Of a DNA stretch of 9,044 nt, positions 1 to 9,044 are shown piece by piece; within the stretch, counting starts at the first letter, position 1; every line of letters begins with the position of its first letter. The notes below the pieces were generated by a model. The model was not told where the DNA came from. It saw nothing but the letters and a program-made list of their open reading frames with translations, and searched no databases. Position numbers and translations under genes: made by a program. Source of the stretch: Gammaproteobacteria bacterium (GTDB lineage: Bacteria > Pseudomonadota > Gammaproteobacteria > Pseudomonadales > Pseudomonadaceae); assembly GCA_012735335.1 (NCBI GenBank), contig JAAYHO010000078.1, positions 1-9,044 on the forward strand, given 5' to 3'.

Positions 1-768
1 GCGCTCCGGGTTGCCGATGCCAGCCACTGCCTGGACCCGGGGCGGCGCGCGCCATTCCCCCGGACGGACCCGTTCGCCGGTCTTCAGGTTGACCAGTACA
101 CTGGCCTGCAGACGCATGGCGTAGGCGCCGTCGGCATCCTTGTCGGCGCCGGTGCGAATCAGCATGTCCGCCTCTGCCAGGCGGCTGGCGGGCTCGCGCA
201 GCGGCCCCTCCGGCAGGCAGCGGCCATTGCCCAGACCCCGGGCGTGATCAATCATCACCAGCTCCAGGGTCCGCCCCATGCGGTAATGCTGCAGACCATC
301 ATCGCTGATGATCACATCCACCGGCGAATGCTCCAGCAGGTAGCGCCCGGCCCGGGGGCGATCCGGATCTATCACCACCGGCACCTGACAGCGGCTGGCA
401 ATCAGCAGCGGCTCATCACCGACCTGCTCCGGGCCATCCTGCCGCGGCTGTACCCGCCAGGGCAGCGACGGCGGCTTGCCGCCGTAACCACGACTGATGA
501 CTCCTACCCGCAGACCGCGACTGCGCAGGTGCTCCACCAGCCAGATGACCATCGGCGTCTTGCCGGTGCCACCCAGGGTGATATTGCCAACCACGATCAG
601 CGGTACCGGGGGTTGCCAACTGGCAGAGGGGTTGTCCAGATAGCGCTGGCGTTTGTTCAAGGCCAGGCGCTGGTACAGGCTGGACAGCGGTCTGAGCAGC
701 GCCAGCCAGCTGTGTTGCCCATACCAGGCGCGCAACAGGCGCTGCTGCAGATCCGGGGTGCGCTTCAT
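1..768 (-). CDS. lpxK: Tetraacyldisaccharide 4'-kinase LpxK (3' end cut by window edge)
   Basis: LpxK phosphorylates the 4' position of the lipid A disaccharide precursor at the cytoplasmic face of the inner membrane, a late essential step of lipid A synthesis. The 256 residues visible begin [12 protein letters not shown]. They carry the family P-loop [13 protein letters not shown] at about residues 60-72, the ISRGYGG motif at 91-97, ISDDGLQH at 154-161, and [12 protein letters not shown] just before the edge. The family is usually about 330 residues, so roughly the last quarter lies outside the window. The ATG at 768 overlaps the exbD stop as ATGA and has only a weak Shine-Dalgarno, so translation is probably coupled to exbD. 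It is the last visible gene of the comEC-exbB-exbD-lpxK run. Identification is firm. Confidence 0.97.
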
Positions 769-7784: not shown

Positions 7785-8504
7785 ATGCTCATATATGGTC
7801 ACCGGGGCGCCCGTGGCGAGGCGCCGGAAAATACCCTGGCAAGTTTTGACAAGGCGCTGCAGGCAGGTGTCACTCGGGTGGAGCTGGACCTGCACCTGTC
7901 CGCCGATCAGCAACTGGTGATCATCCACGACCCGACCCTGCAGCGCACCACCGGGATCAAGGGCAAGGTAGCCCGGCATACCGCCGAGCAGTTGACCCGG
8001 CTGGACGCACGCCTGGGCCTGGCTGGCTGGGAGCAGCCCTGCCCGATTCCCACGCTGGAGCAGCTGTTCCAACAGTTTCCGCAGTTCGAGCATTACCAGC
8101 TGGAGGTCAAGAGCGGCTCCCGGGCCCAGGCCCGTCCGGTGCTGGAGGCGATCATGCAGTTGGTGGAGCGTTACCAGTTGCAGGACAAGGTGGTCATCAC
8201 CGCCGCCAGCCGGCATCTGCTGCGCTACGCCAGAGACAGCCACTGTCCCCTGCCCACCGGGCTGGTGGAGGAGTACGGCATGCTGGATCCGGTCAAGAGC
8301 GCCCTGCGTTATCAATGCCGCTTCCTGGCCCTGAACTGGAAACTCTGCACCCCCACCCGCGTAGCCCAGGCCCAACGCAACGGCCTGCACGTCTCGGCCT
8401 GGACGGTCAATGAGCCGGAGTTGATGCTGAAGTTGCGGGATATGGGAGTCGACAGCCTGATAACAGACGTTCCGCACCTGGCAGTGACGATACTGCAAGA
8501 TTAG
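7785..8504 (+). CDS. ugpQ: Cytoplasmic glycerophosphodiester phosphodiesterase (UgpQ/GlpQ family)
   Basis: The enzyme hydrolyses glycerophosphodiesters, products of phospholipid turnover, to glycerol-3-phosphate and an alcohol. The 239 residues form one GDPD TIM-barrel domain. HRGARGEAPENT (6-17) holds the first catalytic His6. VELDLHLS holds metal ligands Glu33 and Asp35. VIIHDPTLQRTTG holds the second catalytic His48. LEVKSG carries Glu107 and Lys109. The C-terminal SAWTVNEPELMLKLRDMGVDSLITDVP is the family ending. No signal peptide is present and the length is short, so it is cytoplasmic, like UgpQ rather than periplasmic GlpQ. The ATG at 7785 has AAGGAG 4 bases upstream. It is the third gene of the PilZ / exported-protein / phosphodiesterase set. 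No rho-independent terminator with a T-run follows. Confidence 0.93.
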   Translation: MLIYGHRGARGEAPENTLASFDKALQAGVTRVELDLHLSADQQLVIIHDPTLQRTTGIKGKVARHTAEQLTRLDARLGLAGWEQPCPIPTLEQLFQQFPQFEHYQLEVKSGSRAQARPVLEAIMQLVERYQLQDKVVITAASRHLLRYARDSHCPLPTGLVEEYGMLDPVKSALRYQCRFLALNWKLCTPTRVAQAQRNGLHVSAWTVNEPELMLKLRDMGVDSLITDVPHLAVTILQD

Positions 8505-8542
8505 TTCGGCTGTAGGGTCGCTTGGTGCTTGTGGTCCGTGCA

Positions 8543-8572
8543 GGCCTCTGCGTTGGTACACCCCTGCTACGA
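8543..8572 (+). repeat. Left 30-bp inverted-repeat arm
   Basis: These 30 bases, starting GGCCTCTGCGTTGGTAC, match the reverse complement of 8830-8859 at 29 of 30 positions (A versus G at position 18). Twenty-one of its 30 bases also correspond to the outer arm of the right 101-nt element. It may be the remnant of a third copy whose core has been lost: the following bases GTCCGCG do not match the element core. Confidence 0.85.
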
Positions 8573-8588
8573 GTCCGCGCGAGGCCGT

Positions 8589-8689
8589 GCTGGGGTGCAG
8601 GCCCGTGCCGACACGCTGCAAGTACATCCCTGTAAGCTCGCGGTTTTCATCCCTGAAAACCGACGGTCGGCACAACCCTGCACCCCAGC
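8589..8689 (+). repeat. 101-nt modular palindromic element, copy 1
   Basis: Outer arms 8589-8612 and 8666-8689 are complementary at 21 of 24 positions, with the three mismatches together at 8602-8604 against 8674-8676. They enclose two mini-hairpins. TAC-ATCCCT-GTA lies at 8623-8634. A perfect 8-bp stem CGGTTTTC / GAAAACCG with loop ATCCCT lies at 8641-8662. Single-strand boxes are CGACACGC (8609-8616), GCTCG (8636-8640) and ACGGTCG (8663-8669). The expected fold is a three-way junction. Length and all box offsets are identical to copy 2. The repeat family was not recognised. Confidence 0.88.
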
Positions 8690-8751
8690 CGCCAGTAAAC
8701 TTCGCAGCTGCTGCCAGAGAAAACCATCAGCCACTCAGAGTTTCCGCCGTA

Positions 8752-8852
8752 GCGTTGGGACGCCCCTGATACGACCGTTTGATGTCAGGGATGACATCAA
8801 CGAGCCCCCAGGGATGGGTTTACGGCGTGTCGTAGCAGGGGCGTACCAACGC
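8752..8852 (-). repeat. 101-nt modular palindromic element, copy 2 (inverted)
   Basis: Read on the minus strand, the outer arms 8852-8829 and 8775-8752 pair at 22 of 24 positions. Inside are CCC-ATCCCT-GGG (8818-8807) and the perfect 8-bp stem TTGATGTC / GACATCAA around ATCCCT (8800-8779). The boxes CGACACGC (8832-8825), GCTCG (8805-8801) and ACGGTCG (8778-8772) fall at the same offsets as in copy 1. Stem sequences differ from copy 1 yet remain paired. Confidence 0.88.
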
Positions 8853-8859
8853 AGAGGCC
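8830..8859 (-). repeat. Right 30-bp inverted-repeat arm
   Basis: This is the partner of 8543-8572 at 29 of 30 positions. It overlaps most of one outer arm of copy 2 and extends 7 bases beyond it (GGCCTCT on the minus strand). With the left arm it brackets a 317-bp segment. No target-site duplication is evident in the bases just outside. Confidence 0.85.
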
Positions 8860-8864
8860 GACAC

Positions 8865-8912
8865 CGCCCTTGCAGCAGTTAAAGCGAGCGCCCTTGCAAC
8901 AGCTCAAGCGCT
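8865..8912 (+). repeat. Two tandem 24-bp units
   Basis: Units 8865-8888 and 8889-8912 both start CGCCCTTGCA and agree at 19 of 24 positions. They lie downstream of the sthA stop. The array has only two units and looks like a local duplication. Confidence 0.6.
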
Positions 8913-8914
8913 CG
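8885..8914 (-). terminator. Hairpin downstream of sthA, weak terminator candidate
   Basis: CGAGCG (8885-8890) pairs with CGCTCG (8909-8914). After a 2-base CC bulge, CTTG (8893-8896) pairs with CAAG (8905-8908) around an 8-base loop. For the leftward sthA transcript the hairpin starts 27 bases after the stop codon and is followed by CTTTAACTG, a poor U-run, so termination efficiency is uncertain. On the other strand it has no T-run. Confidence 0.4.
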
Positions 8915-8941
8915 ACTCCGACCGGCAAAACCGAAGAAGGG

Positions 8942-9044
8942 TCAGAACAACCGCCCCAACCCATCCAGCGCTGCTACCCGATAGGCTTCGGCCATGGTCG
9001 GGTAGTTGAAGGTGGTGTTGACGAAATACTTGATGGTATTGGCC
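8942..9044 (-). CDS. sthA: Soluble pyridine nucleotide transhydrogenase SthA, C-terminal end (5' part beyond window)
   Basis: Only the last 33 codons and the TGA are visible. They read [20 protein letters not shown] and then [13 protein letters not shown]. This matches the conserved C-terminus of SthA, the soluble FAD flavoprotein that moves reducing equivalents between NADPH and NAD+. The block sits in the dimerisation domain shared with dihydrolipoamide dehydrogenase-type enzymes. The neighbouring glycerophosphodiesterase and lol genes fit the Pseudomonas order. The catalytic and nucleotide-binding parts cannot be judged here. Confidence 0.92.

What the first reader, a model, noticed from the sequence alone, without database searches (positions are those of the whole stretch)
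8589..8852. Two inverted 101-nt elements with the same three-way-junction architecture
Copies at 8589-8689 (+) and 8752-8852 (-) are exactly the same length. Each has 24-nt self-complementary outer arms enclosing two mini-hairpins, and three junction boxes (CGACACGC, GCTCG, ACGGTCG) at identical offsets. The outer arms differ between copies at many positions but pair within each copy at 21/24 and 22/24. Copies that keep structure and length while stem sequence drifts suggest selection on a folded DNA or RNA. It could be a non-autonomous mobile element moved by an enzyme that reads hairpins, a structured 3' UTR, or a nucleoid or topoisomerase site. I do not recognise the family.
Basis: partly seen in the sequence, partly recalled or inferred. 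Interest (0 to 1): 0.75.

Follow-up and report, generated by a model that had tools for sequence, protein, structure and literature searches.

The report
Dispersed repeats carrying twin CsrA-type hairpins
Two inverted copies of a three-armed folded sequence sit here, and they belong to an unnamed repeat family scattered, up to more than a hundred times per genome, through gamma-proteobacteria; one strand of each copy shows two hairpin loops that match the docking motif of the global RNA regulator CsrA/RsmA, so the family likely works as scattered, mobile CsrA docking sites.

Summary
Units A (8589-8689) and B (8752-8852) are 101 nt, align without gaps (61/101 identical) and fold as three-way junctions. 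They lie in one inserted unit of about 327 nt between convergent gdpd and sthA genes; in 23 of 27 parsed loci of the genus that gap is only 5-72 nt. A covariance model from 60 units finds 9 matches in this genome and 21-143 in five others. Of 349 sampled Pseudomonadota genomes 26 match, all in the window's class. Rfam, plasmids, phages and E. coli gave no match. 25 of 30 base pairs show compensatory change. On the better-folding strand the two hairpin loops read CANGGANG in 117 and 121 of 126 matches, the published CsrA/RsmE hexaloop ANGGAN, with the two GGA 19-24 nt apart. I conclude: a REPIN/MITE-like dispersed repeat whose unit is predicted to bind a CsrA/RsmA dimer. Binding and transcription are untested and no mobilising enzyme was found: RAYT transposases are not linked (0 of 34 loci), and single units show no orientation bias towards neighbouring genes (18:18), which argues against a host-selected 3'-UTR role.

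The parts
8538..8864 (.). whole inserted unit: left B-type arm, unit A, spacer, unit B (ends approximate)
   Evidence: aligned with copies at unrelated loci in this genome (C17, C376) and in G025 and G005; gap of 437 nt here, 377 nt in G005, 5-72 nt in 23 of 27 parsed loci
8538..8573 (+). B-type 5' outer-arm fragment, complementary to the right arm of unit B
   Evidence: 30 nt at 97% to the reverse complement of the right end; a similar arm lies left of A in some copies of G025 and G005
8589..8689 (-). unit A, three-way-junction fold; model R1 match 8599-8679, 75.5 bits
8648..8655 (-). hairpin P3 loop of unit A, CAGGGATG (ANGGAN loop closed by C-G)
8625..8632 (-). hairpin P2 loop of unit A, CAGGGATG within UUACAGGGAUGU
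   Evidence: 11 of 12 positions of the CsrA SELEX consensus RUACARGGAUGU quoted
8690..8751 (.). spacer between the two units
8752..8852 (+). unit B, three-way-junction fold; model R1 match 8762-8842, 89.3 bits
8786..8793 (+). hairpin P3 loop of unit B, CAGGGATG
8809..8816 (+). hairpin P2 loop of unit B, CAGGGATG
7785..8504 (+). glycerophosphodiester phosphodiesterase gene, convergent left neighbour
   Evidence: Pfam GDPD E 4.6e-40; conserved neighbour in the genus
8942..9044 (-). 3' end of a soluble transhydrogenase (sthA-like) gene, convergent right neighbour
   Evidence: its C-terminal peptide motif was found next to gdpd in relatives; the gene name is recalled, not from a call

Best explanation
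The two elements lie in one inserted copy of a dispersed REPIN/MITE-like repeat family, and each 101-nt unit is predicted to fold, as RNA of one strand, into a three-way junction that would hold two CsrA/RsmA-type ANGGAN hairpin loops about 20 nt apart, likely for one CsrA/RsmA dimer to bridge. Shown: the family, its copy number, the filled and empty sites at this gene pair, the covarying fold, the loop sequence and the spacing of the two GGA. Inferred: that the unit is transcribed, that CsrA/RsmA binds it, and that binding is why the loops are kept. Because the units form an inverted pair, read-through from either gene would yield one sense unit with two docking sites. The scattered sites would act as decoys or as docking points on 3' ends, and CsrA binding may also serve the spread of the element itself. 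The enzyme that moves it is not identified.
For: Family: 45 of 144 relatives match by blastn at E<=1e-3, 27 of 36 of the same genus (many of these match only the core); pattern matches in 42 of 369 gamma-proteobacterial genomes, reversed control 0; R1 matches 9 in G000 and 21, 23, 40, 143 and 109 in five others, 150 candidates scored each. Insertion: gdpd-sthA gap 437 nt here, 377 in G005, 5-72 in 23 of 27 parsed loci. Fold: 25 of 30 pairs change on both sides, covariation 0.720 against 0.167 shuffled and at most 0.112 slid; with no P1 pairing demanded, 94 of 142 units pair at 13 or more of 20 against 35 of 710 with another unit's arm. Loops: the P3 loop, in no fetch pattern, holds GGA in 71 of 77 de-duplicated units; CANGGANG in 117 of 126 (P3) and 121 of 126 (P2) R1 matches (120 of the 126 are distinct). 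GGA-to-GGA gap 19-24 nt in 59 of 60 units, 20 in 42, against the published 10-63, optimum above 18. Strand: stem wobbles on the GGA strand are G.U 87 against A.C 30 in 77 units; the GGA strand folds better in 64 of 77. A divergent Pseudomonas subfamily has CANGGA in both loops in 27 of 27 listed matches. CsrA genes are in 42 of 45 element genomes, 39 of 39 of the near-complete ones. In vivo lead: P. putida RsmA, RsmE and RsmI pull-downs contain intergenic sequences beside ISPpu8 and a long palindromic region (PMC7937890, passages); kinship not tested.
Against: No orientation bias of single units among codirectional genes (18 same, 18 opposite). No transcript or binding data, and no sigma-70-like promoter in 8400-9044. 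CsrA is expected in this class anyway, so one search is weak support. Under strict clustering (45 clusters) the wobble asymmetry is 16 against 6 clusters, p = 0.05. P2 loops were partly asked for by the fetch patterns, and the 126 matches were found with a model that contains the loops. Units of A1 had to pair at 10 or more of 20 in P1. One pair of P3 (columns 18-41) is unpaired in 31 of 60 units. In the 397-nt + strand transcript the P2 loop of B is predicted buried. In X. campestris, changing all four predicted GGA of another 3'-UTR RsmA-binding RNA, RsmU, did not abolish binding or its overexpression effect (PMC7694677, passages), so GGA loops alone do not prove a role.
Confidence: 0.58

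Rival explanations
1. A single-stranded-DNA transposon of the REPIN kind: the fold and loops are read by a transposase of the HUH/Y1 type during replication, and the likeness to CsrA sites is accidental.
For: Inverted pairs at short spacing, 38 of 39 two-unit groups, arrays, and no match in plasmids and phages resemble REPINs; a strand-specific fold also fits ssDNA.
Against: 0 of 34 Y1_Tnp loci carry a core with at most 3 mismatches within about 1.5 kb, some cut by contig ends; one has a 4-mismatch hit. The 34 are the 4 of this genome and 30 fetched out of 58 matches in 20 element-bearing genomes. G380, 99% complete with 143 R1 matches, has no Y1_Tnp match. Three of six Y1_Tnp loci examined have repeats near the gene, of other sequence. 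The loops vary mostly at the N positions of the CsrA motif.
Confidence: 0.22
2. A host-selected 3'-UTR element: a bidirectional terminator or mRNA stabiliser between convergent genes.
For: Convergent site here; a gene 3' end is the nearer neighbour in 58 of the 96 units that could be classed, out of 160; very stable hairpins.
Against: No orientation bias in single units, 18:18; gap of 5-72 nt at the same gene pair in 23 of 27 parsed loci; only one weak terminator-like site in 8400-9044, against 0.5 expected; terminators need no conserved loops.
Confidence: 0.1
3. A nucleoid-protein or topoisomerase DNA site of the BIME kind.
For: Inverted pairs and arrays.
Against: Conservation is in loops and junction, with stems free to change if they pair, which is not the pattern expected of a double-stranded DNA site; no direct test was possible.
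Confidence: 0.05
4. The family is moved by a GIY-YIG-like/DUF4357 nuclease, whose gene lies between two 95%-identical inverted units in G571.
For: L333: units at 1501-1581 and 2589-2669 flank a 294-aa DUF4357 ORF.
Against: Homologues in only 2 of 80 genomes with an earlier match, G571 itself included, so it looks like cargo or coincidence. The GIY-YIG label is recalled; Pfam gave only DUF4357 over its cut-off.
Confidence: 0.03

Closest known systems
REP and REPIN repeats with RAYT transposases (PMC3733652: abstract and two sections read; PMC3116915: search listing only, REPIN anatomy recalled)
   Same: short palindromic intergenic repeats, inverted pairs with a short spacer, arrays, chromosomal, many copies
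   Different: unit is an about 80-101-nt three-way junction, not a 20-40-nt palindrome; conserved hexaloops; no RAYT linkage found; no invariant GTAG tag (GTAG or CTAC anywhere in 27 of 77 units)
CsrB/CsrC and RsmX/Y/Z decoy RNAs (PMC7652899, section 4 and passages; details partly recalled)
   Same: GGA hairpin loops of the ANGGAN type spaced for dimer bridging
   Different: two loops per unit in a covarying three-way junction; dispersed repeats rather than one gene; no Rfam match; sequestration not tested
Terminal inverted repeats of TIRYT/TIRtron loci (PMC3733652, section 16 read)
   Same: long, partly self-complementary inverted repeats, moderately abundant
   Different: defined by flanking a tyrosine transposase gene, which was not found for this family
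ISPpu8-adjacent intergenic RNAs bound by Rsm proteins in P. putida (PMC7937890, passages read)
   Same: palindromic intergenic sequence enriched with RsmA, RsmE and RsmI
   Different: sequence not available here; kinship untested
RsmU, 3'-UTR-derived RsmA-binding sRNA of Xanthomonas campestris (PMC7694677, passages read)
   Same: 3'-UTR RNA with several GGA, bound by RsmA, no Rfam 13 homologue as stated in the paper
   Different: derived from one locus, the comEA mRNA; kinship untested

Membership tests
REP/REPIN moved by RAYT | RAYT (Y1_Tnp) gene flanked by the repeat | tested here: not met
   0 of 34 Y1_Tnp loci with a core at up to 3 mismatches, one with 4; 2 of 20 element-bearing genomes without any Y1_Tnp match
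REP/REPIN moved by RAYT | GTAG or CGTC tag at one foot of the palindrome | tested here: inconclusive
   no invariant GTAG; GTAG/CTAC anywhere in 27 of 77 units, CGTC/GACG anywhere in 62 of 77, position at the foot not tested
REP/REPIN moved by RAYT | inverted pair with short spacer | tested here: met
   38 of 39 two-unit groups are inverted in one fixed sense, gaps 48-204 nt; 87 units are single and one locus has an array of five
MITE-like non-autonomous mobile element | closely similar copies at unrelated sites, and empty sites in relatives | tested here: met
   C17 and C376 copies about 90% identical to the window over 296 and 263 aligned nt; short gaps in relatives
MITE-like non-autonomous mobile element | target-site duplication and a matching autonomous parent | tested here: inconclusive
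   no transposase among the 25 shown of 124 Pfam families of 134 neighbouring ORFs; gaps in relatives too different to read a duplication
CsrA/RsmA-binding RNA | ANGGAN hexaloop in a hairpin | tested here: met
CsrA/RsmA-binding RNA | two sites 10-63 nt apart for dimer bridging | tested here: met
   19-24 nt in 59 of 60 units
CsrA/RsmA-binding RNA | binds CsrA/RsmA | not testable with these tools
   needs EMSA or CLIP-seq
Known Rfam RNA family | score over a family's gathering cut-off | tested here: not met
   no match at E<=1 in this stretch

The most novel reading that the evidence does not exclude
A bacterial counterpart of Alu-type elements: a protein-less mobile repeat, at over a hundred copies in some gamma-proteobacteria, that spreads through an RNA whose three-way junction docks a host RNA-binding protein, CsrA/RsmA, at two hairpin loops, so that genome-wide copy number tunes the Csr/Rsm network.
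Probability: 0.2. Interest if true: 0.93.

Novelty: new variant of a known kind. Interest (0 to 1): 0.74.

Why it matters
If the loops bind CsrA/RsmA, a global regulator would face dozens to hundreds of unannotated docking sites in many gamma-proteobacteria. That would bear on how CsrA is titrated, might explain palindromic intergenic RNAs in an Rsm pull-down, and would show a repeat family using a host RNA-binding protein. Even without binding, it is a structured family with strong covariation that has no match in Rfam 15, with a ready covariance model.

Tried and rejected
RAYT/Y1 transposase as partner: rejected. DUF4357 nuclease as general mobiliser: rejected. Long-distance inverted pairs as autonomous elements: in L125 and L194 I recognised no transposase among the ORFs between the units. 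Recurrent neighbour genes by all-against-all BLAST of 938 ORFs: no transposase recognised by eye in the 30 clusters shown. Pfam scan of 134 ORFs near units: no transposase among the 25 of 124 families shown. Viral contigs: 0 exact pattern matches. Plasmids, phages, E. coli: none. Literature by sequence fragments: none in the held library; by topic, no title or abstract start about CsrA-binding dispersed repeats in the listings (12 of 42 listed; one search found no paper). The library holds open papers only. Alcanivorax CsrA-related sRNAs (PMC9788540, passages) are single-locus by their description. ISPpu8 is listed as an IS4-family element (PMC3056050, passages). RsmU kinship: I recognised no comEA-like ORF in the two Xanthomonas loci listed; RsmU itself could not be compared. 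REP surveys PMC12306157 and PMC2267715 were only searched for terms.

Rows dropped before counts: A1 holds 60 of 67 clusters with P3 of 20-28 nt, out of 169 units that had to pair at 10 or more of 20 in P1; one search used the 170 matches in named loci out of 273; one search parsed 27 of 30 fetched loci, of 36 genomes with the gene; 17 single units were left out as incomplete and 8 as inside ORFs; one search classed 96 of 160 units.

Full report
Observation. The two 101-nt copies exist as described: inverse orientation, 61/101 identical without gaps, boxes at the same offsets, outer arms pairing 21/24 and 22/24. Folding energies are 6.7 to 9.6 standard deviations below shuffles.

What is inserted. 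The copies are parts of one unit of about 327 nt, 8538-8864. A similar arrangement, about 90% identical over 296 and 263 aligned nt, occurs at unrelated places of this assembly (C17; C376, cut by a contig end) and in relatives G025 and G005. The unit lies between convergent gdpd and sthA genes. In 27 parsed loci of the genus the gap between these genes is 5-72 nt in 23, 437 nt here, 377 nt in G005 with the same repeat, and 279 and 359 nt in two genomes that carry a different inverted repeat there; G025, among the 23, keeps what looks like an eroded remnant.

Distribution. The 327-nt unit has blastn matches in 45 of 144 relatives, 27 of 36 in the genus besides the window's own genome; many of these cover only the core. 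A core pattern with up to one mismatch occurs in 42 of 369 gamma-proteobacterial genomes; its reversed control gave none. Model R1 gave 9 matches in the window's genome, 21, 23 and 40 in three genomes of the genus, and 143 and 109 in two genomes of the class, with only 150 candidates scored each. Of 349 sampled Pseudomonadota genomes 26 match, all labelled own genome, or same family, order or class; how many of the 349 lie outside the class is not printed. Viral contigs, plasmids, phages and E. coli gave nothing.

Fold. The fold is an outer stem P1, a first hairpin P3 with a bulge, an unpaired A, a second hairpin P2 with a 5-nt internal bulge, and an unpaired GU. Of 30 pairs, 25 change on both sides; covariation is 0.720 against 0.167 in shuffles and at most 0.112 when slid. 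P1 pairing had been part of the collection rule, so I repeated the P1 test without it: 94 of 142 units pair at 13 or more of 20 positions with their own arm, 35 of 710 with another unit's arm and 20 of 710 with a shuffled arm. P3, whose pairing no rule asked for, has changes on both sides in 8 of 10 pairs; one P3 pair is open in 31 of 60 units.

Which strand. In P1 of 77 de-duplicated units the GGA strand has 87 G.U and 30 A.C cells (printed there for the other strand). In A1 it is 37 against 13, with rows 23 against 6. In 45 stricter clusters it is 46 against 15, clusters 16 against 6, p = 0.05. The GGA strand folds better in 64 of 77. So the folded strand is probably the one with GGA loops; whether as RNA or as single-stranded DNA is not decided by this.

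Loops. On that strand the hairpins end in CANGGANG, that is, ANGGAN closed by C-G: 117 of 126 for P3 and 121 of 126 for P2 among R1 matches, of which 120 are distinct. In a set where the P3 loop was not asked for, 71 of 77 hold GGA. A review read here gives the RsmE/CsrA site as a hairpin with an ANGGAN hexaloop, the SELEX consensus as RUACARGGAUGU with AC and GU pairing, mostly four or fewer contiguous pairs, and dimer bridging of sites 10-63 nt apart with an optimum above 18 (PMC7652899, section 4). Unit A's P2 reads UUACAGGGAUGU (11 of 12 positions), and the two GGA are separated by 19-24 nt in 59 of 60 units, by 20 in 42. A divergent Pseudomonas subfamily with another P1 has CANGGA in both loops in all 27 matches listed for three genomes. 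CsrA genes are found in 42 of 45 element genomes, and in 39 of 39 that are near complete, which in this class is expected anyway. In the window, folded as read-through transcripts, the GGA loops are open except P2 of unit B in the + transcript. No sigma-70-like promoter was found in 8400-9044, so transcription would have to be read-through.

Organisation. In named loci, 38 of 39 two-unit groups have the GGA strands pointing outwards (minus then plus), 48-204 nt apart; there is one array of five, and 87 units are single. Among single units between codirectional genes, 18 lie in the sense of the genes and 18 against. Arrays occur in other genomes. Other sequence is sometimes inserted inside the P3 loop, with a similar insert in two different genomes (L100, L265).

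Mobiliser. I looked for it and did not find it. Y1/RAYT loci lack the core in 34 of 34 at up to 3 mismatches, with one 4-mismatch hit, and two element-bearing genomes lack a Y1_Tnp match. A DUF4357 gene flanked by two 95%-identical inverted units in G571 has homologues in only 2 of 80 genomes, G571 included.

Mechanism. I favour a REPIN/MITE-like repeat whose RNA unit docks CsrA/RsmA. The fold, loops and spacing are shown; binding, transcription and effect are inferred. The missing orientation bias speaks against a host-tuned 3'-UTR role and for a mobile element that keeps the fold for its own propagation, or for a purely additive decoy effect. P. putida pull-downs of RNA bound to RsmA, RsmE and RsmI contain intergenic sequences beside ISPpu8, one called a long palindromic region (PMC7937890, passages), an encouraging but untested parallel. 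RsmU of Xanthomonas, a 3'-UTR RsmA-binding RNA whose GGA changes did not abolish binding (PMC7694677, passages), is a caution.

Novelty. Dispersed palindromic repeats and CsrA decoy RNAs are both known kinds. A dispersed repeat built around a covarying two-site CsrA-type hairpin module was not seen in the searches.

Changed: three, not four, of six Y1_Tnp loci with other repeats nearby; aligned lengths of the C17 and C376 copies; an untested remark on U-tracts replaced; what was seen of each paper.

Noticed in passing
L242 and L249 (G002, G034), gdpd-sthA gap: A different 279-359-nt inverted-repeat element (ends GGTCTRTTGWCGTTTCGTTCACCC) sits at the same gene junction in two relatives, so this convergent gap looks like a repeated landing site.
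   Followed up: no
L265 (G025) and L100: A similar insert of about 50 nt, itself two small hairpins by eye, is placed inside the P3 loop of a unit in two different genomes.
   Followed up: partly
L333:1501-2669 (G571): A DUF4357 (GIY-YIG-like by eye) gene lies between two 95%-identical inverted units.
   Followed up: yes
L216, L218, L219: Three of six Y1_Tnp loci examined carry unrelated repeats of the CGAGCTGGTGCTCG or CGAGGTGGAACTCG type near the gene, a separate REP-like system in the genus.
   Followed up: partly
window 461-513 (+): Sub-threshold fluoride riboswitch match (22.2 bits, gathering score 34).
   Followed up: no
L234 (G025), gdpd 3' end: The gdpd reading frame seems to end inside an eroded remnant of the repeat, a possible case of a repeat supplying a stop codon.
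   Followed up: no
G130:C1:94430-95646: Array of six units in one orientation with a period of about 227 nt.
   Followed up: no
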